DNA from: CAVYHJ01 sp963768165 [NCBI: uncultured bacterium]
Lineage (GTDB): Bacteria; UBP4; UBA4092
NCBI GenBank assembly: GCA_963768165.1
Contig: CAVYHJ010000002.1
Location: forward strand, 496,001 to 560,000
Reading direction: 5' to 3'
Length of the DNA: 64,000 nt
Made by a program: the position numbers and the translations under genes. Below, piece by piece: positions 2,724-56,628 of the stretch. Each line of letters starts with the position of its first letter. The first letter of the stretch is position 1. The notes under the pieces are model-generated. The model was not told the origin of the DNA, did no database searches, and saw nothing but the letters and a program-made list of their open reading frames with translations.

Positions 2724-3247
2724 GGCAATCCTGGGTGAATTCGGAATGTCCCAGCACTATTTCTGTTATGTTGAACAAACGATTATCTAGCACTTTACTT
2801 TAAATAGGGTATAAAACTGGATCCTTGATCGGGGTTGAGGAAGATAAGTTGGGGTGTGCCATTTTGGCATAGCTAGAAATGCGATTTAAGGGGCTTAAAA
2901 TGTCTCAAAATTGGGTATGGGTTATCTCCGTACCATCTCCATACCATCTCCGTACCATCTCCCAATGAAAAAAAGTGAGGATTTGGCTCGAGACCTGATT
3001 TAAGATTCTTTTAGGTGGGTTCGTTGTTTCTACGTCAATTTTGAGAGGTTTCTGAAGGTTTTAAAAGAGGAGCCGATAATTTTGGTTTTTATAGGGAGAA
3101 ATATCGGGAGGGATACCCAGGAGGGTCTGAGCCTCTTAGGTTACCATCCGTGCCCGAACCGGTTCTTGCGGGTCAGGAATGTCTCCTAAACTGGTTTACC
3201 GAGGGTGTACGTTTTTCTTTTTGCTTACTGTCACAGGGGGAAGAGAG
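2724..3247. other. Gene-free stretch with 11-bp iterons
   Basis: No convincing gene on either strand in 524 bp. It holds a 13-bp palindrome TGCCATTTTGGCA near 2860 and an array of four 11-bp units at 2921-2963, described separately. The same palindrome and a related 11-bp array occur again near 36040-36096 in opposite orientation. The rest shows no recognisable RNA or promoter. Confidence 0.6.
2921..2963 (-). repeat. 11-bp iteron array (copy 1)
   Basis: Four adjacent units with an exact 11-bp period. Read on the minus strand they are (G)GGAGATGGT, ACGGAGATGGT, ATGGAGATGGT and ACGGAGATAAC. Related arrays with the same period occur at 36053-36096 and 56574-56628. Eleven bases is about one helical turn, so units present the same face of the DNA, as in protein-binding iterons; no binding protein is known. 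Confidence 0.7.
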
Positions 3248-4549
3248 CTAAAGTTCGCCTTTATTAATACATTTTTGTATCACTTTATCAATGAGTGGTT
3301 TTTTAAGGATCATAGCCTCTTTGACCGACATTTTGCCAAGGTTAGTGAGTTCGATGGCAGAATCAATGATGTCATAGACTTGTTTATCATCAACAAAAGC
3401 ATCCCCCGCATAGGTATAATTAAGCATTGAGTCCATATAGAGGTTGATGTGAGGTGGCATGATGGGCTGTTTCATAAAGACATCGGAGGTTGCCAAATCT
3501 TTACGAGAGGGCATTGCCACCCCTAATTTCGCCTGCAGGGTTTGAGCTTCTTCACCATAGGTAAGATATTTGAGGAGTTCATACGCTTCTTTGGGATGTT
3601 TAGTTTTACTAGAGATGGCAATCGGCAGCCCGAGGAGACTGACCTTGTTGCCATATTTACCCTTAGGGACATTGACAATATCGTAAGGGAATTTGACATT
3701 TTTCTTATACCCGGCAAAGTTCCATGCCCCGGTGAGAGCCATGGCACAAATCCCGTTTTGGAACAAGTCTCCCCCGAACCCGGAATTTTCGGAAGCCAAA
3801 GGAGCGACATGATATTTAATAGAGAGGTCAACCCACCATTGGATTGCTTCATAGAACTCGGGTTTATCAATCCAAGTTTGCCTACCGTCCGGACTGAGGG
3901 GTGCACCGCCGTTTTCACGGGCGACATCCCTCCAATAGAAAGAATTCCCACCACTGCCCCCGAGTCCAAACTGGTAAACCCGGCCATTCTTTTTCTTGGT
4001 TAATTTAATGGCTTTGTTTAATAAATCATCCCAAGTCCAATCCGCCGTGGGATAAGGTACATGGGACTCATCAAACATTTTTTTGTTATAGGCATAAAAC
4101 AAACAATTGACATCGCGGGGTAAGGCATATAACCTGTTTTTATAGGAACACATATCCAGGGCATGAGGGAAATATTTCGTGGTATCGAGAGTGGGATCAT
4201 GAGCCACCTGGTCGGTGATGTCCATTAAGATTTGCCGGGAAGAGTAAAAGGGCATATCGCCCGGGATAGTCCACATCACATCGGGTGCTATTCCTCCAAC
4301 AGTTAAAACCAGTATTTTCTCCGTGTAATTACCCCACGGAGCATAAACCAGCTTCAGTTTAATTTTAGGATGGGATCTTTCAAAGGCATCCAATATTTTT
4401 TGTTCTTCTGTAAAACTATTTCCACCCGAGAAGGTACAAAAGGAGAGGGTCACCACCCCATTATCCTGTGGTTTATCTTGAGTGCATGACCCCAAGAACG
4501 AGGAGATAACGATAATAAGCAAATAGGAAATAAATTTACACTTTATCAT
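3248..4549 (-). CDS. ABC transporter sugar-binding lipoprotein (extracellular solute-binding family 1)
   Basis: A family 1 extracellular solute-binding protein (MalE/UgpB type) that would capture a sugar or oligosaccharide in the periplasm for an ABC importer. The N-terminus has a lipoprotein signal with lipobox LGSC, the acylated Cys being residue 22 when the ATG at 4547-4549 is used; a TTG two codons upstream (4555) is also possible. Family features include FCTFSGGNSFTEEQKILDAF, APDVMW near residue 85, the WTWDDLLNKAIKLTKK segment, and a late GEEAQTLQA helix. Length (about 433 residues) is normal. No permease or ATPase gene lies beside it, so it is an orphan whose partner must be elsewhere. 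Confidence 0.88.
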   Translation of the reverse strand: MIKCKFISYLLIIVISSFLGSCTQDKPQDNGVVTLSFCTFSGGNSFTEEQKILDAFERSHPKIKLKLVYAPWGNYTEKILVLTVGGIAPDVMWTIPGDMPFYSSRQILMDITDQVAHDPTLDTTKYFPHALDMCSYKNRLYALPRDVNCLFYAYNKKMFDESHVPYPTADWTWDDLLNKAIKLTKKKNGRVYQFGLGGSGGNSFYWRDVARENGGAPLSPDGRQTWIDKPEFYEAIQWWVDLSIKYHVAPLASENSGFGGDLFQNGICAMALTGAWNFAGYKKNVKFPYDIVNVPKGKYGNKVSLLGLPIAISSKTKHPKEAYELLKYLTYGEEAQTLQAKLGVAMPSRKDLATSDVFMKQPIMPPHINLYMDSMLNYTYAGDAFVDDKQVYDIIDSAIELTNLGKMSVKEAMILKKPLIDKVIQKCINKGEL

Positions 4550-4669
4550 ATACAAAATAGAAAGCCCATGAAACTATAGGATTATACAACACGTTCTTTT
4601 AAATTGAAACTTCTGTGAGAAGTGAAGAGATACCATTGGGAAGAATAAAATAGGGATATTGGGGAGTAG

Positions 4670-5881
4670 TTAACCAAAGTCTGATTTGTTGTTTAAATGG
4701 CTGAGGAGACCGGTAACGAGGGAAAAGAGTTGGCCGGTAGCGGTCCAGAGTGTGGTCGCAACGGACAGATTGCCTATAAAGGTAACGGCGGTAAATGCCA
4801 AGATAGTAAATCCAACGAGAGTATCCACATTTTTCCATCCTTTAGAAAACAGGATATAGAAAAGCCAAATCATGGTCAAGAGACCGAGGATACCGAAATT
4901 GGTTGCCATATATAGAAAGATATTATGCGGGTCTTTGAGGTCATTGAAGTTATCTGAGATTTGCGGGGTTTCATATTTTCTCATAGCCAATTGATAACCC
5001 CCTGTACCAGTACCTGACCAAGGATTTTCCGTAAATATTTTTGACGCCTTCTCCCAAATAAAGATTCTCCAGCCGATGGAGGTGTTGGGATCACTATTTT
5101 CATAAGAACGGATATCGTGAAATATAAGAGCTGTACGAGAACGAACAGTCGGAGACAAGAATAAGATGCAGGCACAGGCAAGAGCAATAGCGGTGATTCC
5201 TAATTTATGTTTTTGACCTAGAAGATTGTAACCAATCCACGGGGAAAGAATGACAAAGGCGAGATAACCGGCACGTCCCCAACCCACGAGTAAAGCGACG
5301 ATGTACAGGAGCATGAGTAATAAGAGGAAGATTTTTGTTTTTGTACTGGATGTTTTTGAGAAATAAAAGGATAAAATAAGAATCCCAAAAACAAGGAAAA
5401 GAGTGTGAGTGATATGACCGATAAACCCGGTGGTCATTTCGCCTTTCAAGGGAAAGAGATGGAAGAATTGGAGGATGGAAATGATAGCTGTAATGGAGAG
5501 GCCAGCGAGGAAACAGTTGAGTAGATATTTCATGGCATGTTTGTCAAAAACGAGAGAGGCGATGGCTCCAGCATATAACCAGTAATAGGTTCTTTTGGTG
5601 TAATAGAGACCTGTGGGAAGATCTTTGGTCCAGAGGAGTCCGATGAAGTGGAAGAGGATGAAGAGGAGGACGGGGATAACCCAGAGTCGGTAAAGCCATT
5701 GCCGGCGATCCTGGTAAATTTTGCCGGAGAAAATCCAGATGATGAGAGATAATCCGCCTGTGATGGCGGCGGGGGCGGTTGCCAGAGGCAAGCAGAAGAA
5801 CATCCCGCAGAAACTCCAGAAGAGAAGTTTATTGGACAGTTCCCCCCAATCTGATTTTAAGTTGTCATTTTCAGAAGACAT
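4670..5881 (-). CDS. O-antigen ligase / polymerase family membrane protein
   Basis: A 403-residue polytopic protein with about ten to twelve hydrophobic segments, the first near residues 18-50. The large periplasmic loop carrying WRIFIWEKASKIFTENPWSG and GTGTGGYQLAMRKYE (about residues 275-310) and the following DPHNIFLYMATNFGILGLL stretch are the signature of the WaaL/Wzy O-antigen ligase family (PF04932), which joins or polymerises undecaprenyl-linked glycans at the periplasmic face. The neighbouring GT4 and GT2 glycosyltransferases support a role in surface-glycan assembly. Ligase and polymerase cannot be told apart by sequence alone. It is divergent from the GT4 gene across a 227-bp gap. 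Confidence 0.85.
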   Translation of the reverse strand: MSSENDNLKSDWGELSNKLLFWSFCGMFFCLPLATAPAAITGGLSLIIWIFSGKIYQDRRQWLYRLWVIPVLLFILFHFIGLLWTKDLPTGLYYTKRTYYWLYAGAIASLVFDKHAMKYLLNCFLAGLSITAIISILQFFHLFPLKGEMTTGFIGHITHTLFLVFGILILSFYFSKTSSTKTKIFLLLLMLLYIVALLVGWGRAGYLAFVILSPWIGYNLLGQKHKLGITAIALACACILFLSPTVRSRTALIFHDIRSYENSDPNTSIGWRIFIWEKASKIFTENPWSGTGTGGYQLAMRKYETPQISDNFNDLKDPHNIFLYMATNFGILGLLTMIWLFYILFSKGWKNVDTLVGFTILAFTAVTFIGNLSVATTLWTATGQLFSLVTGLLSHLNNKSDFG

Positions 5882-6108
5882 GGGTTTATTTTACCATTTC
5901 CGAATTTCTAAAATGTATAGCAAGTTTTTGGTTCATGATATAACATATTCGAGGAAAGATACAATGGCAACTAATTGCAGATTTCAGATTTCTATGCGTC
6001 GGGAAATCCACAGTGCTCTCTTCCCGGGGCAGAGAATTGGAATACGCCTTGGATGGTATTTATGAATAAGTTACCTTTGGATTACGAAGTTCGGCGGGGA
6101 CCACGGAG
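5882..6108. promoter_or_regulatory. Divergent intergenic region with hairpin repeat
   Basis: Separates the divergent ligase and GT4 genes, so promoters in both directions are expected. It contains a copy of the 35-nt hairpin repeat at 5996-6030 and, just before it, a short GCAGATTTCAGATTTC stretch that resembles the AAATCTGAAATC simple repeat seen at 43325-43362. No clear -35/-10 pair was identified. Confidence 0.45.
5996..6030. repeat. 35-nt hairpin repeat, imperfect copy
   Basis: Left arm GCGTCGGGAA (5996-6005), 15-nt centre, right arm TTCCCGGGGC (6021-6030). Arm length and the 15-nt spacing match the perfect copies at 59648-59682 and 63902-63936; the right arm has two changes. Confidence 0.6.
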
Positions 6109-7194: not shown

Positions 7195-7966
7195 TTCCGT
7201 TTTTGCAGAAAAACCCTTCTTCCTTTTGAGCTTTTTCCAGAAGTTCAATATTTTTTTCGAGCCGGTCTCTAGAAAAGTCTTTATGATAAAGATGGTAACA
7301 ACACGCGCGGAATTTAACGTCTTTTTTCTTTAGTCCAAATTTATAGAACCGAACCGTCAGTTCAGAATCTTCCTTACCCCACCCCTGGAAATCCTCATTG
7401 AAACCATTAACCGCAAGGAAATCATGTTTATAAAAACTTATATTACAGCTTCGTATTCCTTTAAGATTTGTAGATTTATTAATTAGCGGAATAGGGAACC
7501 GAATGGCATTTATGGTGTTACTAAGTTGCCTTTTTAATGAAAATTGGACAATTTTAAGGAAAGTAATATTCTTATGTGTAAAATATTCAGAAATTTTCGG
7601 TCCCAATAATACCCTATGTCCTTGGATAAAATATCCATGTTCTGAATAATGAAGATGATCTTCGACCATTGTGGGACAGGGGATTGAATCGTCATCACAA
7701 ATCAATAAATATTCTCCAGAACATTGAGCGATGGCTTTATTGCGAATTTGAGCGACTTTAAATCCCAGGTCTTCCTGCCAGACATGGAGAAGCTTGATTT
7801 TTGAATTTTGTTTTATTTGTTGAACCAAGGAAGAGGTTTCACCAGTAGATCCGTCATCCGCAATAACAATTTCATCTGGCAAATGGGTTTGTGCCAAATA
7901 ACCTTCCAACACCCTTTTGAGATAATCGGGACGATTGTAAGTCGCAATGATAATAGAAACCCGCAT
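7172..7966 (-). CDS. Glycosyltransferase family 2
   Basis: An inverting GT2 (GT-A fold) enzyme of 264 residues. The N-terminus MRVSIIIATYNRPDYLKRVL and the nucleotide-binding IADDGS and DDDSIP (DXD-type) motifs are clear. The C-terminal part around FQGWGKEDSELTVRFYKFG matches the Glyco_transf_7C/galactosyltransferase-like extension with the catalytic ED pair. It probably adds a sugar to the surface glycan made with the adjacent GT4 and ligase genes. Its last 23 bp overlap the convergent GT4 gene, which leaves no room for a terminator between them. Confidence 0.92.
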   Translation of the reverse strand: MRVSIIIATYNRPDYLKRVLEGYLAQTHLPDEIVIADDGSTGETSSLVQQIKQNSKIKLLHVWQEDLGFKVAQIRNKAIAQCSGEYLLICDDDSIPCPTMVEDHLHYSEHGYFIQGHRVLLGPKISEYFTHKNITFLKIVQFSLKRQLSNTINAIRFPIPLINKSTNLKGIRSCNISFYKHDFLAVNGFNEDFQGWGKEDSELTVRFYKFGLKKKDVKFRACCYHLYHKDFSRDRLEKNIELLEKAQKEEGFFCKNGINKYLSP

Positions 7967-8565: not shown

Positions 8566-8658
8566 AATTAGTGAACTTTTTTTTCTTTGCGTTATTGAGG
8601 TTATCTATAATATACTATTTAGGGAAAGCAGGGGAAGTGCCCTTCTTGAAATTTAGGC

Positions 8659-11579: not shown

Positions 11580-11592
11580 GAGATTATATAAA

Positions 11593-35785: not shown

Positions 35786-36052
35786 AGCAACTCATCTAAT
35801 AAACCTCAAACTGTTTTAACAGTTTTCAACTCGTTGGCTGTAGAAATTTGCCTATATTCTAATTGGTTTGTCTATAGGATTTAGGGGTTAGATAAAGAAA
35901 TCCTCCGAGTATAGTGGTTTAGAAAATTCCAATGATACAAAAAGCCCAAAGTTAAGATGAGAGCGAAAAACCTGAAAACCCTCTTTCTGAAAAACCCTAA
36001 AAACATCAAAAATACATCGAATAAACACCGACAAAGGTGTGCCAAAATGGCA

Positions 36053-36096
36053 TGGGAGATGAAGCGGACTTAAACTGGAGTTAAAGTGGAGACATT
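36053..36096 (+). repeat. 11-bp iteron array (copy 2)
   Basis: Four adjacent 11-mers: TGGGAGATGAA, GCGGACTTAAA, CTGGAGTTAAA, GTGGAGACATT. Less conserved than the other arrays but with the same period. It is preceded by the TGCCAAAATGGCA palindrome, also found beside array 1. Confidence 0.6.
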
Positions 36097-36247
36097 GTGT
36101 AGCTTACTTTACACTTTTGGACATTTTTTTAGCACATAATAGGAACGGTTGTTAACTTGAAAAAATCTTTAAAATATCCCCTGACAAATCATTTTTTATA
36201 CTATATGCGCTAGTTTGAATAAACCTACCTTCGTTAGGTTAAATAAC

Positions 36248-36366: not shown

Positions 36367-36367
36367 C

Positions 36368-36529
36368 ATGGTAATTAGAACCAAAAGAAATGAAGAAGTA
36401 GCTCAAATGAAAGATGCCAACTTTGAGCAATTCGAACCTAAAAAAGTTATCCTCCTTACGGTACTGGTATTGATACTCATTCCCATTTTATTCAAGTCTG
36501 AGTTTTGTTCACCACACTTTCCACTATGA
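36368..36529 (+). CDS. Possible small membrane protein
   Basis: A 53-residue frame with one strongly hydrophobic helix, KKVILLTVLVLILIPILF, preceded by a charged stretch. An internal ATG at 36407 gives a 40-residue form. Neither start has a clear ribosome-binding site and no family was recognised. It may be chance. Confidence 0.22.
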   Translation: MVIRTKRNEEVAQMKDANFEQFEPKKVILLTVLVLILIPILFKSEFCSPHFPL

Positions 36530-36892
36530 AGCTGTCATTTTGACTTTGGCTTTTTGCACTACATCTTTTATTTATCATTGCGCGAAGTCAGTATTGTTTT
36601 TTAGGACGACATGGGAGTATAATACCCGAATATATATGGATACTAAAAGATGGAATATTGTGAAAAAACTGGGAAGGATATTATTTTTAGAAAAATTACC
36701 GAATAACACTTAATTTTTTACATTCATAAAGCATTGGGAATAAACAGGTTACAAAAATAATGGAAAAATATTTATGATTTGTGTAAGAAAATGGCTTCGA
36801 GATGACACTATTATAGTAGGAGATTAGATGCGAATCTGACTCTTTTAACAAAAATTTCATAAAATAAGGAAAATACTCTGAGGAGGGAAAAA

Positions 36893-42852: not shown

Positions 42853-43353
42853 ATGAAAATAATATCCGCACGGAAGAAAATAAAATCGTTGTCTGCTTTA
42901 CTCAAGGACATACGCCGGTTGCAAAAACAAGGGAAGAAGGTTGTTTTTACCAACGGGGTGTTTGACCTATTGCATATCGGTCATTTGCGGTATTTGGAGA
43001 AAGCGCGCTCGAAGGGGGATGTGTTGGTGGTGGCGATTAATACCGATGCGTCTGTTAAAGAGTTGAAAGGGAATCACCGGCCTTTGCTCCCGCAGAAAGA
43101 GAGAGCGGAATTATTAGCAGGGTTCGCGTGCGTGGATTATGTGACATTCTTTGGCGAGGATACACCATTAAAAACCATTGTGAAATTACATCCCGATGTG
43201 TTGGTGAAAGGTGCAGATTATAAGATACGCGAAATTGTGGGAGCGAAAGAAGTCGTCGGATGGGGCGGAAAAGTAAAACGGATTGCATTTATCAAGGGAT
43301 ATTCTACTACGCAATTTATCCACCGAATTTTAAATCTGAAATCCAAAATCTAA
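42853..43353 (+). CDS. D-glycero-beta-D-manno-heptose 1-phosphate adenylyltransferase (RfaE2/HldE C-domain)
   Basis: Nucleotidyltransferase that makes ADP-heptose for the inner core of lipopolysaccharide. The 166 residues begin MKIISARKKIKSL (ATG at 42853; a frame extending eight codons upstream is less likely). Signature: VVFTNGVFDLLHIGHLRYLE with the HIGH-type motif (about residue 45), LVVAINTDASVKELKG, RPLLPQKERAELLAGFACVD and VLVKGADY; the C-terminus has IKGYSTTQFIHRIL with the STT motif. The kinase half of HldE is not attached, so it must be a separate gene. The last codons lie in an AAATCTGAAATC simple repeat. Confidence 0.94.
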   Translation: MKIISARKKIKSLSALLKDIRRLQKQGKKVVFTNGVFDLLHIGHLRYLEKARSKGDVLVVAINTDASVKELKGNHRPLLPQKERAELLAGFACVDYVTFFGEDTPLKTIVKLHPDVLVKGADYKIREIVGAKEVVGWGGKVKRIAFIKGYSTTQFIHRILNLKSKI

Positions 43354-43362
43354 AATCTGAAA
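43325..43362 (+). repeat. AAATCTGAAATC simple repeat at the rfaE2 3' end
   Basis: Four imperfect 10-11-bp units (AAATCTG, AAATCC, AAAATCT, AAAATCTG) span the last codons and stop of the heptose gene and the gap to the helicase gene. The coded C-terminus, NLKSKI, is thus repeat-derived. Confidence 0.5.
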
Positions 43363-43368
43363 TTGATT

Positions 43369-47308: not shown

Positions 47309-47977
47309 TTACAACAATGCCTTGGTTTTCTGAATTTCTTCCCGGACTTGTGCGGCATTGGGAGAATTCGGATTATTCACCAGCAATTGGTTCCAGGCAT
47401 CAATGGCCTTTTGATATTGTTTCAAATCTTCGCGATAGGTGATTCCCATGTTAAACCAGCTTTGGTAATGTTGAGGTGAAATCTGGCTGGCTTCCTTGAA
47501 ATACGCCAGGGCTTTGTTGTAATTTTTCAGTTCCCGGTACATACTTCCGCAATCTGTCAGTACATCCGGATTTTTTCGGTCGAGTGCCAATGCTCTCTCA
47601 TAGGTCGCAATGGCTTTCTCCGGATTATGACTGTTATAATACAAATTTCCCAGATGAATCAAAAGCTGTAAATTATTCGGATCTGATTTCAATATCTCTT
47701 CCATCTTTGCAATCGCTTGGGGTGTATCAATATTCACCGGTCCCGGCATCGTTTCCTTTTGAGTCACATCCATTGCCGTCCCTGGATTAACCGAAACATT
47801 TGTCATCGGATTGGAAAGTTGGTTATGTGCATTATCTGCAAACCAGATTCCACCGAGAAAACCAACGACCAACGCACCCAGCACCCAAACAGAACCCATG
47901 AAAATGGAAATATGCTTGCCGGATAATTTCTCCGGTAGAGGAATGGACTTGCGATTTTCTTGGTTTTGCCGGCTCAT
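47309..47977 (-). CDS. Membrane-anchored TPR protein next to the cytochrome genes
   Basis: A 222-residue protein with an N-terminal transmembrane helix (about 25-47, ISIFMGSVWVLGALVVGFLG) and at least three canonical TPR units from residue 98 onwards, for example LLIHLGNLYYNSHNPEKAIA and YQSWFNMGITYREDLKQYQK. The layout resembles CcmH/NrfG-type TPR proteins that help cytochrome c maturation, which would suit the multiheme genes immediately upstream; this is inferred from context. A terminator-like hairpin (48002-48031) separates it from the tetraheme gene. Confidence 0.82.
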   Translation of the reverse strand: MSRQNQENRKSIPLPEKLSGKHISIFMGSVWVLGALVVGFLGGIWFADNAHNQLSNPMTNVSVNPGTAMDVTQKETMPGPVNIDTPQAIAKMEEILKSDPNNLQLLIHLGNLYYNSHNPEKAIATYERALALDRKNPDVLTDCGSMYRELKNYNKALAYFKEASQISPQHYQSWFNMGITYREDLKQYQKAIDAWNQLLVNNPNSPNAAQVREEIQKTKALL

Positions 47978-48001
47978 TTCATTACCCTTTCGTGGTAAGA
48001 A

Positions 48002-48031
48002 AGAGAGGTGTAAAATTCATCACACCTCTCT
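48002..48031 (-). terminator. Terminator-like hairpin after the tetraheme gene
   Basis: On the minus strand AGAGAGGTGT, 10-nt loop, ACACCTCTCT, then TTCTTACC; 10 perfect pairs located 17 nt after the stop of the tetraheme gene. The T-run is short. Confidence 0.6.
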
Positions 48032-48047
48032 ATTGTTGAGGATAATT

Positions 48048-48491
48048 TTATCCTTTTCCATATAATTTCTTATTACTGACATGAGGATCATGACAGGTCG
48101 TACATACTGGGACTTTTGTAATTGTATCCTTCTTCTGCTCTTTCGCTGCGGCAACATGTTCACTTCCCGGCCCATGACAGGCTTCACAGGTTACCCCCGC
48201 CAAATCTGGTGTGCTGGTTGCATCTTTGAATCCGGTATCTTTTCCTGCTCCGGTTACGTGACATTTATTGCAAGTAGCGTCTGCCTGTTTATCCGCAGGT
48301 AAATTTTTTAATGCATTCACATGTTCGGGCATATTCTCCTGCCAGCTTTTGTATTGGGCAATGTGGCACATCTTGCATTTATTCGGACCCACATACGTTG
48401 CTTTGTCCGATTGTGCGGCGCCAGACGTATTCACCAACATCCACCCTCCCAATATCAATCCTACGATTCCATAGATATACATTTTTTTCAT
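48048..48491 (-). CDS. Tetraheme periplasmic cytochrome c
   Basis: A 147-residue exported cytochrome with four CXXCH heme sites: CKMCH, CNKCH, CEACH and CTTCH. The start is the ATG at 48491, chosen because GGAGG lies 8 nt upstream; an in-frame GTG three codons earlier overlaps that site. An N-terminal signal peptide (MYIYGIVGLILGGWMLVNTS, ending SGAAQ) directs it to the periplasm. The GPNKCKMCHIAQYKSWQENM and VTCEACHGPGSEH segments resemble cytochrome c-554/multiheme families. It probably shuttles electrons to or from the 18-heme cytochrome encoded 17 nt upstream. Confidence 0.92.
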   Translation of the reverse strand: MKKMYIYGIVGLILGGWMLVNTSGAAQSDKATYVGPNKCKMCHIAQYKSWQENMPEHVNALKNLPADKQADATCNKCHVTGAGKDTGFKDATSTPDLAGVTCEACHGPGSEHVAAAKEQKKDTITKVPVCTTCHDPHVSNKKLYGKG

Positions 48492-48508
48492 CGTACTCAC
48501 CTCCTTCC

Positions 48509-50548
48509 CTAATGAGTTTTTGTAATAGTCGGTAAATCTTTTTTCAATTGCACCAACCGTTTTTTCGCTTCGGTAATCAAATTATCCGAAAATTCCATAT
48601 TATGCGCACCATTGCTCTTGTCACGTTTGAGGACGTCAATCATTAATTGTGTTTCTTTGAATAATTGTTCCTGTTCCTGTGTGGTCCATTTGTGTTTTGC
48701 GAGGGGACTGTACAACTTATCCAATTCTTTTAAACCATCCACCGTATTCTGTTCCCACCCGTCCACCATATCGGGATAATTCTTATCATGGCATGCCACG
48801 CAGGTATCTTTGATTTTTTTCATATCACTACCCTTACTCAAATCGGGATGACATCCTTCACACGGAACTTTTTTTGCCATGATATTCGGGGAAGCTTTGA
48901 CGTTTGCAACGGTCATATCTCCCGTATACATATTGGCTTCAAGGGAATGACATGCCGAACATTGTGCATCCTTTTGCGCATGATGACAGGTCTTGCAATC
49001 ATTTTTTTCAACCAGAATCATGCCGTGCTTCTTTTCGGTATTCTGATGACATTTCAAACAATCCAATTTGGCCTTTTCCAAATGGATCCCATGCGGGAAA
49101 ATCAATCCACCGAGATTTCCGATATTATTTTCAATCCCGAAATGGCAGTTGTAACACTCGGAATTCGGACCGGCATGTTTGATGGGTGCAAATTTCGGTT
49201 GATAACTTGATTTGACTAGTTTTAATGCCTGTTGGATTTGAGATTGGGAGGATTCCAACAATTCCTGGGCATATTGAATATTGTGTACGCCTTTCCCATA
49301 TTGCACAAAGCGCAGGTTGTATTCTGCTTCCGCCAGTAATGCTTTTGCCTGGGAATTTCCTTTTATTTCGGTTTTCGCCCGTGTTAAGGACTCTGTTAAT
49401 TCAGCAACCAATTGTTGCAATTGGTTTTGCCAGCCGGATAAAATCGCCTTGTATTGGTCGCTATGGCAGGACACGCAGGATTCTTTTCCCGCTGTCATTG
49501 TGGCCTTGGTGATTTCGTCTCCATGCGGTTGCGAGTGACATCCTGAACAACTGACCTGTGCCAGGAACATGGGATCCAATTTCTGCGGATGCTCTCCCTT
49601 CCCGCCGATCCCCATGTACATTTCTTTTTGTGCCACATGATGATTGGGATGGCAGGTCTGACAATCAATAGCCACCGATGGTGACATCTTGTTAATCTTA
49701 TGTTGAATTTCCACATGGCAATGCAAACAATCGATGGAATGTTTGGTAACATGGTTGGAATGAATCAAATTAATGTCATTATATTTTTCTAATTTCCAGG
49801 TTTCGTCATGGCAGGTGTAACAGCGTTGTTTGGGAACCGCACCATCTCCCACCACAACATCCACATGGCATCGTTCACAGGAAATCCCCTGTTTAATAAT
49901 TTCTTTATGATCCACCCGAACGCCCTGGAATTCTACTACTTTATCCAATCCGGAATGACAGGCAAGACAACCGGCAACCGATTGGTTCTGTTGTAATCCT
50001 TTGAAATGGCACAAAACACAAGAACTCGGCGTGACGGTTAGATGTTCACCTTGTACAATCTGTGAATGGCAGGAGGTACAACGTAATTTCATTCCCCGAC
50101 GTACTTCTGTTAGATGCGGTGTATGATCAAAGACAACTTTTACATCACCCAGTTGAGCCGTCACTTTTCCTTTTAATAATCGGGTTTGGTGACATCCTTC
50201 CCGCAAACAGGAGGCATCCGGTATTTCCGCCCAGGGTTTACTCCCGTAGGTCTGGGTAAAATATTTCGCCACCATCCCCAGGGCTTGAAATTTGGCGCGA
50301 ATCTCATGGGTCATCCCGGGAGGAATATGACATTCCACACAAGGCACATTTTTATGACCGGATTCCTGCCACGATACAAAATACGGCTTCATAATATGAC
50401 ATGAAATACAAAATTGCGGTCGGCTGGTATATTCAGCAGCAAGAAAACTTAAAACAACGAATCCAATAATACCGATAATTCCAAATTTTAATAATCTAAT
50501 TAGCCATTTTTTAATCAGAATTTTCTTTTCTTTAGTAAACCAACGCAT
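48509..50548 (-). CDS. 18-heme NapC/NirT-anchored cytochrome c with NrfA-like repeats
   Basis: A 679-residue membrane-anchored multiheme cytochrome (an ATG five codons upstream, at 50563, is also possible; the chosen one has AGGTG upstream). An N-terminal helix (about 18-38) and QFCISCHIMKPYFVSW plus VPCVECHIPPG are NapC/NirT-like, so it could take electrons from quinol. In all there are 17 CXXCH motifs and one CLREGCH (CX4CH), 18 potential hemes. Two helical segments after CVSCH (GVHNIQYAQELL) and after CVACH (GAHNMEFSDNLI) resemble the C-terminal helices of NrfA-type pentaheme proteins and are related to each other, indicating internal duplication. Probable role: electron conduit across the periplasm. 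Confidence 0.9.
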   Translation of the reverse strand: MRWFTKEKKILIKKWLIRLLKFGIIGIIGFVVLSFLAAEYTSRPQFCISCHIMKPYFVSWQESGHKNVPCVECHIPPGMTHEIRAKFQALGMVAKYFTQTYGSKPWAEIPDASCLREGCHQTRLLKGKVTAQLGDVKVVFDHTPHLTEVRRGMKLRCTSCHSQIVQGEHLTVTPSSCVLCHFKGLQQNQSVAGCLACHSGLDKVVEFQGVRVDHKEIIKQGISCERCHVDVVVGDGAVPKQRCYTCHDETWKLEKYNDINLIHSNHVTKHSIDCLHCHVEIQHKINKMSPSVAIDCQTCHPNHHVAQKEMYMGIGGKGEHPQKLDPMFLAQVSCSGCHSQPHGDEITKATMTAGKESCVSCHSDQYKAILSGWQNQLQQLVAELTESLTRAKTEIKGNSQAKALLAEAEYNLRFVQYGKGVHNIQYAQELLESSQSQIQQALKLVKSSYQPKFAPIKHAGPNSECYNCHFGIENNIGNLGGLIFPHGIHLEKAKLDCLKCHQNTEKKHGMILVEKNDCKTCHHAQKDAQCSACHSLEANMYTGDMTVANVKASPNIMAKKVPCEGCHPDLSKGSDMKKIKDTCVACHDKNYPDMVDGWEQNTVDGLKELDKLYSPLAKHKWTTQEQEQLFKETQLMIDVLKRDKSNGAHNMEFSDNLITEAKKRLVQLKKDLPTITKTH

Positions 50549-50567
50549 AAACACCTGACCCATCTAT

Positions 50568-50585
50568 TTGTGAAATAATTCACAA
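50568..50585. promoter_or_regulatory. CRP/FNR-type operator before the 18-heme gene
   Basis: The perfect dyad TTGTGAAATAATTCACAA fits TGTGA-N6-TCACA. On the minus strand it starts 5 nt after a TATACA -10-like hexamer (50591-50596), so it would overlap the transcription start and most likely repress. It lies 20 nt upstream of the chosen ATG. Confidence 0.5.
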
Positions 50586-50649
50586 GCAGATGTATAAAAG
50601 AGAATGGTATTGAAATATTTTATTTGTATGAATTTATATGAAAATATAG

Positions 50650-51828
50650 TTAAATCTCAGCGAACACATCGTTTAAGTTATTTTTTTTCATTCTGACCGG
50701 TTCATAGGTACAATACGGTTCCTCATCCATAAAATTCCCTGTGTTATAGAATGCCCGCGCCCGGCAACCTAGGCATACATTTTTGAATTCACATAATCCG
50801 CATTTGCCTGTAAGCTGATTCGGATCACGCAACATTTGAAATTGCTCGGATTTCTCCCAAATATCTTTCAACGATTGTTTCCGGATATTGCCGCATTCTA
50901 CGGGCAAATATCCACAGGGGAAAACTTCACCCTTGTGGGATATGAAGCAAATCGCGCTTCCTGCCAGGCATCCTTTGGTCATGGCCGCCATGCCATGCGT
51001 TTTCGGAGTAACTGTAATCCCTTCCTGTTTCGCCCGCTGCCGGACTACCCGGAAATAATGCGGTGCACAAGTGGCTTTCAAATGCATTTTTCCTTCCCGC
51101 GATTTATCGTAGATCCAATTGAGGACTTCCTCATATTTATCCGCGGTGAGCATATTGGATTGGGCAATCTGCACTCCGCATCCCACCGGGACCAGCATAA
51201 ATAAATGCAGTGCTTCCGTATCCAATTCCAATGCCAAATTATACAATTGCTCCAATTGGTGAACGTTATGTTGGGTCACGGTGCAATTGATTTGCATGCT
51301 CATGCCGAGTTTCCGTAAATGACGAAAACCGTTTAACGCTTTTTCTAATGAACCTTCCTGTTTTCGGAATTCGTCATGGGTTTTCTTGTCAGCCCCATCT
51401 ATGCTGATAGACACCCGTTGAATCCCTGATTCCACAATTTCTTTAGCTTTCTTTTCATCAATCAATGTTCCGTTGGTTGCCAGCGCGACCGTTAATCCCT
51501 TGCTCTTGGCGTAGGATGCAATCTCCAAAATATCAGGTCTGTATAACGGTTCTCCGCCCGATAAAACCAAAATTGGATTCCCCACAGCCACAATTTGATC
51601 CACCAATCTTTTTGATTCCTCGGTCGTCAAATCATCCTTCATCAACATCTTGCTTACATCAATTCTTCGGCAATGGATGCATTCCAAATTACACCCCGCC
51701 GTGGTTTCCCAAAACAACAACCGCATTTCATTCTGTTTGTTCTGCATATACTGGTGCGCGGGATGTGTTCCGCCACCTTGTTTTATTTCCTGAAAGGTTT
51801 GCTTGATATTCATTGGATGACCGCTCAT
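50650..51828 (-). CDS. ahbD: Radical SAM heme b synthase AhbD-like
   Basis: The last step of the siroheme-dependent pathway: oxidative decarboxylation of two propionates of Fe-coproporphyrin III to give heme b. The ATG at 51828 is used because AAGGAGG lies 8 nt upstream; a much longer frame exists but has no support. The 392-residue protein has the radical-SAM triad GCNLECIHCRR (CX3CX2C), GGEPLYRPDILEIASYAKSK, TNGTLIDEKKA and SISIDGADKKTHDEFRK, and a SPASM-type C-terminus, CGLCEFKNVCLGCRARAF with a final PYC, for auxiliary Fe-S clusters. Its neighbours AhbC and a siroheme protein support this; NirJ of heme d1 synthesis is a related alternative. Confidence 0.85.
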   Translation of the reverse strand: MSGHPMNIKQTFQEIKQGGGTHPAHQYMQNKQNEMRLLFWETTAGCNLECIHCRRIDVSKMLMKDDLTTEESKRLVDQIVAVGNPILVLSGGEPLYRPDILEIASYAKSKGLTVALATNGTLIDEKKAKEIVESGIQRVSISIDGADKKTHDEFRKQEGSLEKALNGFRHLRKLGMSMQINCTVTQHNVHQLEQLYNLALELDTEALHLFMLVPVGCGVQIAQSNMLTADKYEEVLNWIYDKSREGKMHLKATCAPHYFRVVRQRAKQEGITVTPKTHGMAAMTKGCLAGSAICFISHKGEVFPCGYLPVECGNIRKQSLKDIWEKSEQFQMLRDPNQLTGKCGLCEFKNVCLGCRARAFYNTGNFMDEEPYCTYEPVRMKKNNLNDVFAEI

Positions 51829-51892
51829 AGAGTCAACCTCCTTGCTAATGTAAAAGCAAATCGAAAGTGAATCCAAATGTGATAAATTTGTT

Positions 51893-52609
51893 TCATACCA
51901 ACTCGCTTTCCCGCTCTTGAATAATAGTTTCGTTGTTTTGGGAATAATTAATTCCCAACCGATTGAGTAAACTACCCAGTCGCTCACCGGGTTTTCCATG
52001 TTCTATCAATAGTTGTAAATGCGCTTCCAATTCTTGATACACTCTCTCTTCGTCAACTAACTCAGCCACCACTTGCGCCAACTGCGGATGCCGGCCCAAT
52101 TTTCCTCCCGCTAATACTCGATATGCCACGCCTTCCGGCATAATCGTTTGAGTCGGACAGACGCGCGAACATTGGCCGCAATGTACACACTCCGAATAAT
52201 CGAAACTCACCTGTTTCATGTTTACGAAAACTGAATTCTCTTTACAGGCTTTGACGCATTGTAAACAAGCAATGCACGGATTTTCTGTTGTTACAGGTCG
52301 TGATTGGCCGTTGACTCCAAAATCTTTGATATGCGGTTCCGAACAGCAATTCGGACATCCCGCCACTGCTACACGAAATTTGTAATGGGTAAGTAAAGGT
52401 CCCTTTACTCTGGATTCAATGACTTTTGGTAAGTCTGATTTTTCAATTCGTTCGGCGATTGTTTGGGCAACTCGTTTGACATCTATCAACGTCATCGGGC
52501 AACCCATGGCACCCCCGCACATCTTCACACTGAAATAACGCGAATCAATCGTTCCTTCCTCTTCTGTCATTTTTTTGATTTTTCGCAGTGCGTCTTCCTG
52601 CCAGTTCAT
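51893..52609 (-). CDS. Small siroheme sulfite-reductase-like protein with two-cluster ferredoxin domain
   Basis: A 238-residue redox protein. The sulfite/nitrite reductase siroheme-Fe4S4 ligand set is complete: CGGAMGC (C-x5-C, about residue 31) and GCPNCCSEPH (C-x3-C, about residue 84). A 2[4Fe-4S] ferredoxin follows, CIACLQCVKACKE and CVHCGQCSRVCP. It resembles the small assimilatory-type sulfite reductases and subunit C of anaerobic sulfite reductase, but is shorter than the latter and has a ferredoxin added. It lies between AhbC and AhbD (18 and 64 nt away). It may reduce sulfite, or handle siroheme for the heme pathway; the sequence does not decide. Confidence 0.82.
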   Translation of the reverse strand: MNWQEDALRKIKKMTEEEGTIDSRYFSVKMCGGAMGCPMTLIDVKRVAQTIAERIEKSDLPKVIESRVKGPLLTHYKFRVAVAGCPNCCSEPHIKDFGVNGQSRPVTTENPCIACLQCVKACKENSVFVNMKQVSFDYSECVHCGQCSRVCPTQTIMPEGVAYRVLAGGKLGRHPQLAQVVAELVDEERVYQELEAHLQLLIEHGKPGERLGSLLNRLGINYSQNNETIIQERESELV

Positions 52610-52627
52610 CGGTTCTCTCTCATTCCC

Positions 52628-53872
52628 TTATGCATTCACAGCAATTCTATCCGTTGCCAATCCAATTTCTTCATCGGTTAAATAACACGCCGGGTCTTGT
52701 GCCCACGGATCGTCGTACACTCGCAATGCCCGCACCCGGAAACTTCCGCCGCATACATCTTTCCATTTGCATTCCGCGCAGCGCCCTTTTAATAACGGCA
52801 GCCGATTCTTGAGTCCCGCGAAAATCGGATTCGTTCTATCCGTCCAAATTTCACTGAATTTTCTTTCTTTAACATTTCCTAAATGCAAGTCCTGCCAAAA
52901 TTGGTCCGGATGGACATTTCCGTACATGTCAATTTCGCCAATCCCCACGCCGGATGAATTTGCGCCCCCGCCGTTCCAACGCAAGAGTTGTAAAACCTCT
53001 TCCGCCTTTTCTGGATTTTCTTGTTTCAATTTCAAATACAAATACGGGCCATCCACATGGTTGTCCACGGTCAATATATCTTTCTGTAATCCCCGGTCTA
53101 CAAAATCTTTTGTCCGTCTCAAGATAATATCCAGTGCGTGCCGGGTTTCTTCATGAGTTAAATCGTCTGCCGAAATCTTGCTCCCTCGTCCGCTATACAC
53201 CAGATGATAAAAACAAGCTCGCGGAATTTCTTCTTTTTCAATAAAATCAAATATTTCTTCCAAACTCTCATAATTTCTTCTCGTTAAGGTAAATCGCAAC
53301 CCCACTTTTTGACCGACGGCTTTACAATGGCGCAACCCATTCAATGCTTCTTCAAACGCTCCCTTTTTTCCGCGGAATTTATCGTTTACTTCTCCCAATC
53401 CGTCAAACGAAATCCCCACGTAAGAAAATCCTGTATCCTTGATCCATTGCGCTTTTTCTGGAGTGATTAATGTCCCGTTGGTCGAAATCGTGAGCCGTAA
53501 TCCTTTCGACCGCGCGTATCGCGCCAGGTCAAAAAAATCCGGTCGGATTAAAGGTTCTCCACCCGAAAGTAACAACGCGGGAATTCCAAATTGCGCCAAA
53601 TCATCTATCATTTCCTTGGCTTCTTCCAGGGTTAATTCGCCGGGATAGAGTTTGTCATGGGAGTCGGTATAACAATGCACACAATGGAGATTGCATCTTC
53701 GGGTAATGTTCCAAACCACAATCGGTTTTCGCTCATTTGCCGATTTGGGAACGGAATGTTCCTGGGTCTCGGTCGCGTGGGGACTCCCGTGTCCCGCGCC
53801 GCGCTTGTGTCCGTATCGCAAAGGATCTCCCGTCGTATCCTTGCCCGCGTATAACTTGGTGATGTCTATCAT
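52628..53872 (-). CDS. ahbC: Radical SAM 12,18-didecarboxysiroheme deacetylase AhbC-like
   Basis: Third step of the siroheme-to-heme route, removing the acetate side chains of didecarboxysiroheme. The N-terminus MIDITKLYAGKDTTGDPLRY is typical of the AhbC/NirJ group. The triad RRCNLHCVHCYTDS (CX3CX2C, about residue 61), LLSGGEPLIRPDFFDLA and TNGTLITPEKA follow. The C-terminal SPASM-like region has GRCAECKWKDVCGGSFRVR and a last Cys in DPACYLTDEE. A GAGGT site precedes the ATG. AhbA and AhbB, the siroheme decarboxylases, are not in the window. Distinguishing AhbC from NirJ needs alignment. Confidence 0.85.
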   Translation of the reverse strand: MIDITKLYAGKDTTGDPLRYGHKRGAGHGSPHATETQEHSVPKSANERKPIVVWNITRRCNLHCVHCYTDSHDKLYPGELTLEEAKEMIDDLAQFGIPALLLSGGEPLIRPDFFDLARYARSKGLRLTISTNGTLITPEKAQWIKDTGFSYVGISFDGLGEVNDKFRGKKGAFEEALNGLRHCKAVGQKVGLRFTLTRRNYESLEEIFDFIEKEEIPRACFYHLVYSGRGSKISADDLTHEETRHALDIILRRTKDFVDRGLQKDILTVDNHVDGPYLYLKLKQENPEKAEEVLQLLRWNGGGANSSGVGIGEIDMYGNVHPDQFWQDLHLGNVKERKFSEIWTDRTNPIFAGLKNRLPLLKGRCAECKWKDVCGGSFRVRALRVYDDPWAQDPACYLTDEEIGLATDRIAVNA

Positions 53873-53900
53873 ACTCTTTACCTCGCTTCTTTTTTGTTCT

Positions 53901-53933
53901 GTGTCGAGAATGAGTTCTTTACTTTCCCGACGC
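53901..53933. repeat. Degenerate copy of the TCGGGAA hairpin repeat
   Basis: Left arm GTGTCGAGAA (53901-53910), 13-nt centre, right arm TTCCCGACGC (53924-53933). The right arm is perfect, the left has two changes. It lies in the 68-bp gap between the NfnB-like gene and ahbC. Confidence 0.5.
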
Positions 53934-53940
53934 CTACCCT

Positions 53941-55344
53941 TTATTTTTGCATGACATATTCATGCATTGCTTTTCCTGCTTTTCTTCCCTGCCCCATCGC
54001 CGAGATGACTGTTGCTTCTGCTGACGCGATGTCTCCTCCCGCGAAAACTCCCGCCCGCTGCGTCATCTGGGTATTTGGGTCAACGGTTAAATATCCATCT
54101 TTATTGGTTTCTAATCCTGCCGTTGTCCGCATAAGTAAATCATTGGATTTCGCGCCAATCGCAACCACTACTGTATCCACCGGTAACACAAAATTTGACC
54201 CTTTGATTGGGACAGGTCTCCGTCGCCCGGAACTATCAGGTTCCGATAATTCCATGCGGATACATTCCATTCCTTCCACCCAACCTTTGGAATTTCCTTG
54301 ATACGCTACCGGACTGGTCAGATATAAAAATTTGATTCCTTCCTCTTGCGCGTGATGTAACTCTTCCAATTTCGCCGGGATTTCTTTTTCCGAACGCCGG
54401 TACACGATATACACTTCCTCCGGCTTCAGGCGTAATGCAGTTCGCGCGGCATCCATCGCCGTATTCCCGCCCCCGATGACCGCAACCCGTTTCCCGCAAT
54501 AGACGGGGGTATCGTGATTCGGGAAATCAAACGCTTTCATTAAATTAACCCGCGTTAAAAATTCATTCGCGGAACAAACTCCGCATAAATTCTCCCCGGG
54601 GAGATGCAAAAAAATCGGGGTCCCGGCTCCAGGTGCGATGAATACAGCCGAATACCCGTCCCCAAATAATTCATCAATGGTGATGGTTCTTCCTACCAGG
54701 GTATTCAACGCAAATTCCACTCCGTGTTTTTCCAGTGCTTGGACTTCATCGTGAACAATATTTTTCGGTAAACGGAATTCCGGTATCCCGTAAATCAACA
54801 CCCCGCCCGCTTCATGCAGCGCTTCAAAGACCACCACATCATGTCCGAGCTTGGCCATATAATCGGCAGCGGTCAATCCGGCAGGACCCGACCCCACTAC
54901 CGCAATTTTCTTTCCTGTGGATTTAGGCCGGACAATGATTTCTGTGATTCCACTTTTCCGTTGGTAATCCGTTACAAATCGTTCCAATGCGCCAATCGCT
55001 ACGGACATTCCTTTGCGTCCCAAAATACAGGTTTTCTCGCATTGGTTTTCCTGCGGGCAGACACGACCGCATACTGCCGGCAAACTATTGGTCTGGCTGA
55101 TGGTCTGGCTGGCATCCTCAAATTTTCCTTCTGCGACCTGTTTCACAAATAAGGGAATATCAATCGCCACCGGGCATCCTTCTGTGCAATAAGGCCGTTT
55201 GCATTGCAAACATCGCTGGGCTTCCTCTATCGCTAACTTTTCGTCGAAACCCATCGCAACTTCATCAAAACAAGTCTGGCGGACCTGCGCGTCCCGGGTC
55301 GGCATGGCATGTCGTGGTATTTTAATTTTTGCTTTATTATCCAT
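53941..55344 (-). CDS. NADPH-dependent glutamate-synthase-beta-type flavoprotein (NfnB/SudA/GltD)
   Basis: A 467-residue iron-sulfur flavoprotein. The N-terminus has the cysteines RCLQCKRPYCTEGCP and CGRVCPQENQCEKTC for two [4Fe-4S] clusters, then KIAVVGSGPAGLTAADYMAK (FAD Rossmann fold), the IPEFRLPKNIV segment, VAVIGGGNTAMDAARTAL (NADPH fold) and GVFAGGDIASAEATVISAMG. The ATG at 55344 or an in-frame GTG at 55353 may be used; either overlaps the upstream gene. With the adjacent NfnA-like subunit it most likely forms an NfnAB-type transhydrogenase or sulfide dehydrogenase (SudAB), not true glutamate synthase, as no GltB is present. Confidence 0.9.
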   Translation of the reverse strand: MDNKAKIKIPRHAMPTRDAQVRQTCFDEVAMGFDEKLAIEEAQRCLQCKRPYCTEGCPVAIDIPLFVKQVAEGKFEDASQTISQTNSLPAVCGRVCPQENQCEKTCILGRKGMSVAIGALERFVTDYQRKSGITEIIVRPKSTGKKIAVVGSGPAGLTAADYMAKLGHDVVVFEALHEAGGVLIYGIPEFRLPKNIVHDEVQALEKHGVEFALNTLVGRTITIDELFGDGYSAVFIAPGAGTPIFLHLPGENLCGVCSANEFLTRVNLMKAFDFPNHDTPVYCGKRVAVIGGGNTAMDAARTALRLKPEEVYIVYRRSEKEIPAKLEELHHAQEEGIKFLYLTSPVAYQGNSKGWVEGMECIRMELSEPDSSGRRRPVPIKGSNFVLPVDTVVVAIGAKSNDLLMRTTAGLETNKDGYLTVDPNTQMTQRAGVFAGGDIASAEATVISAMGQGRKAGKAMHEYVMQK

Positions 55345-56212
55345 GTTGGACACCCGTAGGACACCCTTCAGGGTGGAATTCAGAAACTTGATTCATATGG
55401 CATTGTTCTAGGGATTTATGTTCAAAGTCTCGATACATCCGAGCCCGGTTGGAGAATTCATCGAAATTAACCAAATGCGCGTCAAACTCCGGACCGTCGG
55501 TACAGGCAAATTTCGTTTCGGTCCCTACCTGAACCCGGCATCCCCCACACATCCCCGTCCCGTCTACCATAATGGGATTTAAACTTACAATGGTTTTTAC
55601 TCCACTAGATCGGGTGCATTCGGCGACCGCCCGCATCATCGGTAAAGGTCCTACGGCAATCACCCGGTTCACCCCTCCCTTGTCTCTTAAAATTTCTTGT
55701 AAAGGTTCCGTGACCAGCCCTTTTCTACCTTCTGAACCGTCATCCGTCATTACAATGAGATAATCGGAAACTTGTCTCATAGGTTCTTTCATAATCAGCA
55801 ATTCCCGCGTCCGGGCACCGATAATCGAAGTGAGCATATTCCCTTTTTCATGCAGAGCTTTGGCGAGCAAATGTATCGCCGCAATCCCGAATCCCCCGCC
55901 GAGTAATACTACATGTCCAAAATTCTCTACTTCGGACGGATGACCCAAAGGACCGAGTATATCGGGTATATCATCTCCGGTATTTAATTTGCCTATCCCT
56001 TCCGTGGTTTTACCGATTTCTTGTACCACGATAGTAATCGAACCCTCTTTCGGATTTGTATCCGCGATGGTTATCGGGATTCGTTCTCCCCGCTTGGTAA
56101 CCCGAATTATCACAAATTGGCCCGGTTGGGCATGGGTCGATATCAAAGGAATATGAATTCGCAGATAATGTGTTTTTGGAGCGATTAAATTCTTTGCCAG
56201 GATTTTTGCCAT
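55337..56212 (-). CDS. NfnA/SudB-type FAD-NAD and [2Fe-2S] subunit
   Basis: A 291-residue ferredoxin-NADP reductase/PyrK-like protein. The FAD-binding barrel has RIPITIADTNPKEGSITIVV, the NAD-binding domain LLGGGFGIAAIHLLAKALHE, and the [2Fe-2S] cluster ligands DGTGMCGGCRV with FACTDGPEFDAH (about residues 216-245). It pairs with the glutamate-synthase-beta-type protein whose gene overlaps by about 8-17 bp. In such complexes electrons are exchanged between NADH, NADPH and ferredoxin or polysulfide. First gene of the minus-strand redox operon. Confidence 0.92.
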   Translation of the reverse strand: MAKILAKNLIAPKTHYLRIHIPLISTHAQPGQFVIIRVTKRGERIPITIADTNPKEGSITIVVQEIGKTTEGIGKLNTGDDIPDILGPLGHPSEVENFGHVVLLGGGFGIAAIHLLAKALHEKGNMLTSIIGARTRELLIMKEPMRQVSDYLIVMTDDGSEGRKGLVTEPLQEILRDKGGVNRVIAVGPLPMMRAVAECTRSSGVKTIVSLNPIMVDGTGMCGGCRVQVGTETKFACTDGPEFDAHLVNFDEFSNRARMYRDFEHKSLEQCHMNQVSEFHPEGCPTGVQHG

Positions 56213-56269
56213 TTTACCTAATCCTCACTCATATTTTTAAAATTTATTACAACTTCACTCTTCTTTAGG

Positions 56270-56285
56270 GCAGAATATATGCCAA
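56270..56285 (-). promoter_or_regulatory. Sigma-54-like promoter of the redox operon
   Basis: On the minus strand TTGGCATATATTCTGC has the GG and GC pairs separated by 10 nt, matching TGGCA-N6-TGC. Transcription would start near 56258, 45 nt before the ATG of the NfnA-like gene. Confidence 0.4.
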
Positions 56286-56573
56286 CCTATTACAACTCGC
56301 TAAATTATTGTAAATACTTGATTTGTTTATTGTTATGTAAAATAAACCGGATTAGTTTTGGATAGACTGTTTTAAAGTTGCGTTTGTTAATGTTTCAAAA
56401 GTAAACAGTAAAATATACATTTTTTTGTAGACGATTGATTTATTGATAGATACGTTATTTCGTGAGTGATTTTAACACTGTTCTTATCCCTTACAATCCC
56501 ATATAACCCCTTCCCTACCCAAAAATAGGATGAATGACCCCCATTTTTCCTCCGAAAAACAAACGTATCACAA

Positions 56574-56628
56574 GCGAACCTGAAGCGAAGACAAAACGGA
56601 GATAATACGGAGATGAAACGGAGTTGGG
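56574..56628 (+). repeat. 11-bp iteron array (copy 3)
   Basis: Five adjacent units: GCGAACCTGAA, GCGAAGACAAA, ACGGAGATAAT, ACGGAGATGAA, ACGGAGTTGGG. The three central ones closely match the array at 2921-2963 on its minus strand. Confidence 0.7.

What the first reader, a model, noticed from the sequence alone, without database searches (positions are those of the whole stretch)
2921..56628. 11-bp iteron arrays at three distant intergenic loci
Arrays at 2921-2963, 36053-36096 and 56574-56628 each hold four or five adjacent 11-mers related to RCGGAGATGAA. The period is exactly 11 at all three, and two of them sit beside the palindrome TGCCAWWWTGGCA. Because 11 is not a multiple of 3 and all lie in gene-free DNA, coding is an unlikely cause. 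One-turn spacing suggests cooperative protein binding, or a degenerate mobile repeat.
Basis: partly seen in the sequence, partly recalled or inferred. Interest (0 to 1): 0.6.

Follow-up and report, generated by a model that had tools for sequence, protein, structure and literature searches.

The report
Dispersed 11-base tandem repeat arrays
Three small clusters of a repeated 11-letter DNA word sit between genes of an unidentified bacterium and look most like landing sites for a regulatory protein that binds side by side along the DNA, though no such protein has been identified and simple repeat growth is not ruled out.

Summary
Arrays lie at 2919-2962 (A1, minus strand), 36055-36098 (A2, plus) and 56576-56630 (A3, plus). 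A1 and A3 exceed all 200 simulations on 11-base periodicity; A2 only ties the maximum but is found by a profile built from A1+A3 (0 of 300 simulations). Profiles from A1 or A3 alone recover the other (0 of 400 permuted controls each). All three lie between genes. TGCCAWWWTGGCA occurs exactly twice, near A1 and A2. A3 abuts a perfect 30-bp palindrome holding GGAGAT head-to-head.

Units have a conserved block, [Y]GGAGWTR, and 3-4 variable bases. Flanks share nothing else, so no longer mobile element is seen. The three-unit pattern occurs in 9 of 915 genomes sampled from four phyla, 3 of 915 for the reversed control; two of the three arrays in these 64 kb satisfy it. The density looks special to this lineage.

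Best reading: operators for a protein binding head to tail every 11 bp, like OmpR/PhoB-type regulators (0.42). Close rival: intergenic repeats grown by slippage. Neither the host genome nor a close relative was available, so regulator and genome-wide count are untested.

The parts
2919..2962 (-). Array A1: four 11-bp units, GGAGATGGTAC x3 (one ending in T) and GGAGATAACCC
   Evidence: sequence, TRF period 11, lag-11 score 27/33 vs simulated maximum 22
2857..2869 (.). Palindrome TGCCATTTTGGCA, 49 bp from A1
   Evidence: 0.02 exact sites expected per simulated window
36055..36098 (+). Array A2: four diverged 11-bp units GGAGATGAAGC GGACTTAAACT GGAGTTAAAGT GGAGACATTGT
   Evidence: found by a profile built from A1 and A3, 0 of 300 simulations; lag-11 score 22/33 only equals the simulated maximum
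36040..36052 (.). Palindrome TGCCAAAATGGCA, 2 bp before A2
35956..36054 (.). Weak 11-bp phasing (A-rich) continuing upstream of A2
   Evidence: lag-11 match 0.41 over 88 positions, reached by 0.8% of window positions; lags 8-15 are also raised in this A-rich stretch (0.29-0.38 against 0.43 at lag 11)
56576..56630 (+). Array A3: three good units (56598-56630) preceded by two degenerate units
   Evidence: TRF period 11; lag-11 score 26/33
56626..56655 (.). Perfect 30-bp palindrome GGGATGAAGGAGATC/GATCTCCTTCATCCC overlapping the end of A3; carries GGAGAT head-to-head
   Evidence: one of 8 perfect inverted repeats (arm at least 10, loop at most 6) in the window
56764..56791 (-). Promoter-like TTGACA-16-TATAAT (12 of 12) upstream of the gene starting at 56212
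   Evidence: consensus scan; a pattern match, not proof of a promoter

Best explanation
The arrays are cis-regulatory operator clusters. Each 11-bp unit presents a 7-8-bp recognition block ([Y]GGAGWTR) once per helical turn, so a regulator can bind head to tail along one face of the DNA and cooperate with its neighbours. That is how OmpR/PhoB-family response regulators read 7-bp repeats with 4-bp spacers. The palindromes would be sites for a second, dimeric factor (A1, A2) or an inverted pair of the same site (A3). Shown: the arrays, their fixed pitch, the conserved-block/variable-spacer pattern, the intergenic position, one palindrome near two of them. Inferred: protein binding, its family, cooperativity, any effect on the neighbouring genes.
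For: Across 11 units positions 1-4 agree in 43 of 44 cells and position 6 in 10 of 11, while positions 8-10 carry 0.2-0.6 bits; divergence is concentrated outside the block, as expected for a binding site. The pitch stays exactly 11 in all three although A2 units are strongly diverged. All three are intergenic. The exact palindrome occurs twice in 64 kb, both times near an array. Architecture precedent: an abstract seen in a search listing says M. tuberculosis PhoP recognises direct repeats of 7-bp motifs with a 4-bp spacer (PMC4832192); passages of PMC7866108 describe four 11-nt core direct repeat units plus two less conserved ones in a 64-nt region protected by PhoP.
Against: No regulator gene, footprint or regulon is known, and no response regulator was named among the 38 window proteins scanned. 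Array strand and distance to neighbouring genes are not consistent: A1 reads towards the minus-strand ORF about 200 bp away, A2 lies between divergent genes, A3 reads away from the gene it precedes and would lie inside its leader if the 12/12 promoter is used. Neighbouring genes (TPR protein, YicC-like and LVIVD proteins, an iron-sulfur oxidoreductase) suggest no common theme. In A1 the spacer GTA is identical in three of four units, which looks like recent duplication. Part of the unit comparison is circular: A2 was picked out by its likeness to the core, and the two degenerate A3 units were left out of it. Palindromes of the 5-3-5 form are common (82, with 11 recurring arm sequences).
Confidence: 0.42

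Rival explanations
1. Short dispersed intergenic repeats that grew by replication slippage from an 11-bp seed and are tolerated in the large non-coding stretches of a repeat-rich genome; no dedicated binding protein.
For: The arrays lie in three of the five longest intergenic stretches. The window's intergenic DNA is rich in perfect inverted repeats: 8 with arms of 10 or more against 0-1 in 8 simulated windows, 7 of the 8 intergenic. Spacers are somewhat alike within an array (position 10: identity 0.60 within against 0.25 between arrays). Single short arrays with a GGAGAT core, each with its own spacer, appear sporadically elsewhere (G201, G748, G821, G844), and a shuffled heptamer also forms 11-bp arrays in viral contigs (4 stretches against 12).
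Against: Slippage alone does not explain why separate loci share one core (0 of 400 controls) nor why the core is conserved while spacers differ. A shared source would leave shared flanks; none were found.
Confidence: 0.36
2. Iterons of a segregation or chromosome-organising system: a ribbon-helix-helix or similar protein coats each array, as ParR does on plasmid R1 parC.
For: [quoted passage not shown] Arrays are scattered over 54 kb.
Against: Only 3-5 units per array and diverged; none of the 38 window proteins scanned was named as a partition or replication-initiation protein (one type II/IV secretion ATPase had a weak FtsK/SpoIIIE match).
Confidence: 0.1
3. A degenerate mobile element of which the array is one piece.
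For: The array and a palindrome recur together at two loci; the window's intergenic DNA is rich in inverted repeats.
Against: Apart from the 13-bp palindrome the three masked flanks score near simulated pairs (26, 22, 24 against null means 23.9, 23.4, 26.9 and maxima 32, 32, 38 of 100); order and distance of array and palindrome differ.
Confidence: 0.07
4. Chance resemblance of unrelated low-complexity stretches.
For: A2 alone is not exceptional by periodicity.
Against: No control run reaches A1 or A3 in periodicity (200 simulations), A2 in profile score (300) or the mutual recovery of A1 and A3 (400 each).
Confidence: 0.03

Closest known systems
PHO-box type operators of OmpR/PhoB-family response regulators (e.g. 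PhoP direct repeat units of Streptomyces, M. tuberculosis PhoP sites)
   Same: Direct repeats at 11-bp pitch, conserved block of about 7 bp with about 4 less conserved bases, several units in tandem, intergenic.
   Different: Core sequence GGAGWTR is not one I know for this family (recall); no response regulator, footprint or regulon shown; position relative to promoters not consistent.
parC iterons of plasmid R1 (ParR binding sites)
   Same: Tandem direct repeats of one helical turn in blocks of five.
   Different: Three scattered small arrays here, with no partition genes named among the 38 scanned proteins.
REP/REPIN and other dispersed intergenic palindromic repeats
   Same: Short, intergenic, recurring, near palindromes, in DNA with many intergenic palindromes.
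   Different: Tandem 11-mers rather than a single palindrome; no conserved flanks; a REP-associated transposase was not specifically searched for.

Membership tests
OmpR/PhoB-type direct-repeat operators | Direct repeats at 11-bp pitch with a roughly 7-bp conserved block and 4-bp spacer | tested here: met
   Per-position information over 11 units, two degenerate A3 units left out; pitch exact in all three arrays
OmpR/PhoB-type direct-repeat operators | Consistent placement upstream of regulated promoters | tested here: inconclusive
   All intergenic and near at least one gene start, but orientation and distance vary; promoter-like sites are at chance near A1 and A2 (1 vs 1.0, 5 vs 4.7) and somewhat above it near A3 (11 vs 5.8, sd 2.6), including one 12/12 site
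OmpR/PhoB-type direct-repeat operators | Bound by a cognate response regulator | not testable with these tools
   No host genome held; no binding data
Partition-site iterons (parC type) | Array adjacent to genes for a DNA-binding adaptor and a motor NTPase | tested here: inconclusive
   No such family named among 38 scanned window proteins; not every ORF was scanned
Mobile repeat element | Copies share sequence beyond the tandem array | tested here: not met
   Flank alignments near the simulated background except for the 13-bp palindrome
Known structured RNA | Match to an Rfam model | tested here: not met
   Only a tRNA in the window at gathering thresholds; nothing up to E=5 in 35650-36900; the A1 and A3 regions were not searched at the looser setting

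The most novel reading that the evidence does not exclude
A lineage-specific, chromosome-wide family of iteron-like 11-bp arrays, with paired palindromes, bound by an undescribed protein that filaments along DNA and acts as a global regulator or chromosome organiser in an unsampled bacterial lineage.
Probability: 0.12. Interest if true: 0.6.

Novelty: new member of a known kind. Interest (0 to 1): 0.33.

Why it matters
If the window is representative (three arrays per 64 kb), a genome of a few megabases would carry on the order of a hundred arrays or more (extrapolation), enough to define a regulon or a chromosome-wide landmark in a lineage for which no close relative was found here. The core sequence gives an immediate bait for finding the protein. 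If instead the arrays are slippage products, they are a modest addition to bacterial intergenic repeats.

Tried and rejected
Finding relatives: YicC as a query found none. A T2SS ATPase was sought in the genomes of 26 of the 80 loci (25 of 26 match; best near-full-length match 50%, G002). The CoaBC-like protein was sought in 48 of the 80 (43 of 48 match) and in 151 genomes of HRbin16's phylum (145 of 151 match); the best matches are 50-53% identical. The organism stays unidentified.

Viral contigs: the heptamer pattern at pitch 11 has 12 hits, two pairs of which are the same sequence; a shuffled heptamer gave 4. Pitch 12 saturated at 119 or more, so it was useless as a control. A palindrome-plus-array pattern gave none. 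A CGGAGAT pattern gave 4, three of them already seen. I judged these hits to be independent repeats: L093 matches the G821 locus, and L090 and L095 have arrays next to AAA_25 genes. Two-unit matches in 12 genomes picked because they had shown array hits (9) or control hits (3) number 31 in 10 genomes, 0-6 per genome, against 6 for the reversed control: no expansion like the window's, but more than the control, as the selection makes likely.

BLAST of array neighbourhoods: A1, A2 and A3 against plasmids, A1 and A3 against phages. The listed matches had E of 1 or more; A2 had none. A conserved gene stretch had no plasmid match. Literature: three text searches with the core letters or '11-bp' terms (20 of 322 papers listed; 10 of 15,765; both of 2) showed no title or abstract recognisably describing this repeat. 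That is weak evidence: capped lists, open papers only, and sequences are rarely in text.

RNA-level reading (GGAG as ribosome-binding decoys): dropped because array strand is not consistent with transcription direction.
Full report
Observation. The three arrays exist at the stated places to within two bases. In unit register they are A1 2919-2962 (minus strand), A2 36055-36098 (plus) and A3 56576-56630 (plus). Tandem Repeats Finder assigns period 11 to each, and to one unrelated two-copy stretch at 51859-51882. By identity at lag 11 over 33 positions A1 scores 27 and A3 26; the largest value in 200 first-order Markov simulations was 22. A2 scores 22 and so is not exceptional on periodicity alone. 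It is recovered by a profile trained only on A1 and A3 (20.4; maximum of 300 simulations 14.6). The relation between A1 and A3 does not depend on A2: each profile alone finds the other as the best place in the rest of the window, and 0 of 400 column-permuted profiles match that in either direction.

Context. With a gene map built from the ORF list, 13.3% of the window is intergenic and all three arrays lie there, in three of the five longest intergenic stretches. A1 lies between the 3' end of a solute-binding-protein gene and the start of a TPR-protein ORF. A2 lies between the divergent YicC-like and LVIVD-repeat genes. A3 lies upstream of a minus-strand iron-sulfur/NAD-binding protein gene. 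Only small overlapping ORFs, which I judge unsupported, cover the arrays. TGCCAWWWTGGCA occurs exactly twice, 49 bp from A1 and 2 bp from A2, with two more sites at one mismatch inside ORFs; 0.02 exact sites are expected per simulated window. As a caution, the window has 82 palindromes of this 5-3-5 form and 11 of their arm sequences occur at least twice, so the association is suggestive rather than proven. A3 runs into a perfect 30-bp palindrome carrying GGAGAT in both orientations; it is one of eight perfect inverted repeats of the window, seven of them intergenic, against 0-1 in eight simulated windows.

Unit structure. Over the 11 units counted (four of A1, four of A2, the three good ones of A3; the two degenerate A3 units were left out), positions 1-3 are invariant, position 4 is G in 10 of 11 and position 6 is T in 10 of 11. 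Positions 5, 7 and 11 are two-letter, and positions 8-10 carry 0.2-0.6 bits. So the unit is a conserved block of 7-8 bases plus 3-4 variable ones. Spacers are somewhat more alike within than between arrays (position 10: 0.60 against 0.25), a hint of local duplication. Weak 11-bp phasing continues upstream of A2 (0.41 over 88 positions, reached by 0.8% of window positions), but other lags are raised there too; the sides of A1 and A3 are less marked.

Not a larger mobile unit. With arrays masked, the best local alignments between the three intergenic regions score 26, 22 and 24, against simulated means of 23.9, 23.4 and 26.9; the 26 is the shared palindrome itself. No Rfam family matches in the window apart from one tRNA, and nothing up to E=5 in the A2 region.

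Elsewhere. No genome is held for the window, and no close relative was found. The three-unit pattern GGAGAT-N5-GGAGAT-N5-GGAGAT with one mismatch allowed matches 3 of 387, 1 of 291, 3 of 119 and 2 of 118 genomes drawn from the phyla of an Opitutae, HRbin16, a Planctomycetota and a Bacteroidetes record: 9 of 915, against 0, 2, 0 and 1, together 3 of 915, for the reversed control. A first survey with the heptamer pattern gave 1 of 50 genomes, the Opitutae genome that recurs, and 0 for its control. By sequence, A1 (exactly) and A3 (one mismatch) satisfy the three-unit pattern, so the window holds two such loci in 64 kb. I looked at the loci of 6 of the 9 genomes: G201, G748, G821 and G844 hold short arrays with their own spacers, some overlapped by small mechanical ORFs; the G744 and G846 matches lie in longer ORFs. 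In 12 selected genomes two-unit matches stay at 0-6 per genome, 31 in all against 6 for the control. In viral contigs the heptamer forms such arrays in 12 stretches and a shuffled heptamer in 4. So 11-bp arrays of this core do arise sporadically in other genomes, but the density in the window looks particular to its lineage; that it holds genome-wide is extrapolation.

Interpretation. I prefer operator clusters read head to tail by a cooperative regulator, with OmpR/PhoB-type proteins as the closest precedent for a 7+4 pitch. For M. tuberculosis PhoP this rests on an abstract seen in a search listing (PMC4832192), and for Streptomyces PhoP's four core plus two less conserved 11-nt units on passages (PMC7866108). 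Evidence for: divergence concentrated outside the core, exact pitch in diverged units, intergenic position, a palindrome near two arrays. Against: inconsistent orientation and distance to genes, no shared theme of neighbours, no regulator named among the 38 proteins scanned. The slippage-repeat reading is nearly as likely. Partition-type iterons (R1 parC, passages of PMC4949242) share the geometry but lack companions here. REP/REPIN elements were considered from listing abstracts only (PMC3116915, PMC3733652).

Verdict. A real, modest, probably lineage-specific repeat family of a known kind with an unidentified binder; interesting mainly because a single genome assembly could settle it.

Noticed in passing
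59532-60666: A 1.1-kb intergenic stretch packed with palindromic repeats, including three CTGGATTCCCG..CGGGAATGAC-like elements and two perfect palindromes (60237-60260 and 60621-60654).
   Followed up: partly
56869-56949 and 59637-59684: Inverted CATCGGGAA...TTCCCGATG elements flank a Schlafen-group-3 helicase gene (57555-59531) and two small plus-strand ORFs (57061-57270, 57295-57465) with their own promoter-like site at 56951; AT-rich, possibly an acquired island.
   Followed up: no
1716-2723: The TPR-protein ORF upstream of which A1 lies opens with what looks like the middle of a domain and no evident signal peptide; by eye the frame opens after a stop roughly 30 bases upstream of the listed start, so the gene may be 5'-truncated.
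   Followed up: no
36893-40387: A 1164-aa protein with 14 LVIVD beta-propeller repeat matches whose DNA shows strong 126-129-bp tandem repetition.
   Followed up: no
47309-55353: Multihaem cytochromes, NirJ/AhbC-like radical SAM protein and a sulfite-reductase-like protein (matches below the curated NCBIfam cut-offs), suggesting anaerobic respiration and the siroheme-dependent haem pathway.
   Followed up: no
16581-16608 and 43332-43363: Two heptamer tandem arrays (GCAGATT x4; AAATCTA x4.6) at gene starts.
   Followed up: no
L088 positions 1411-1538; L241 positions 7579-7606: A viral contig and an Opitutae genome share the same 11-mer array with spacer ACCG.
   Followed up: partly
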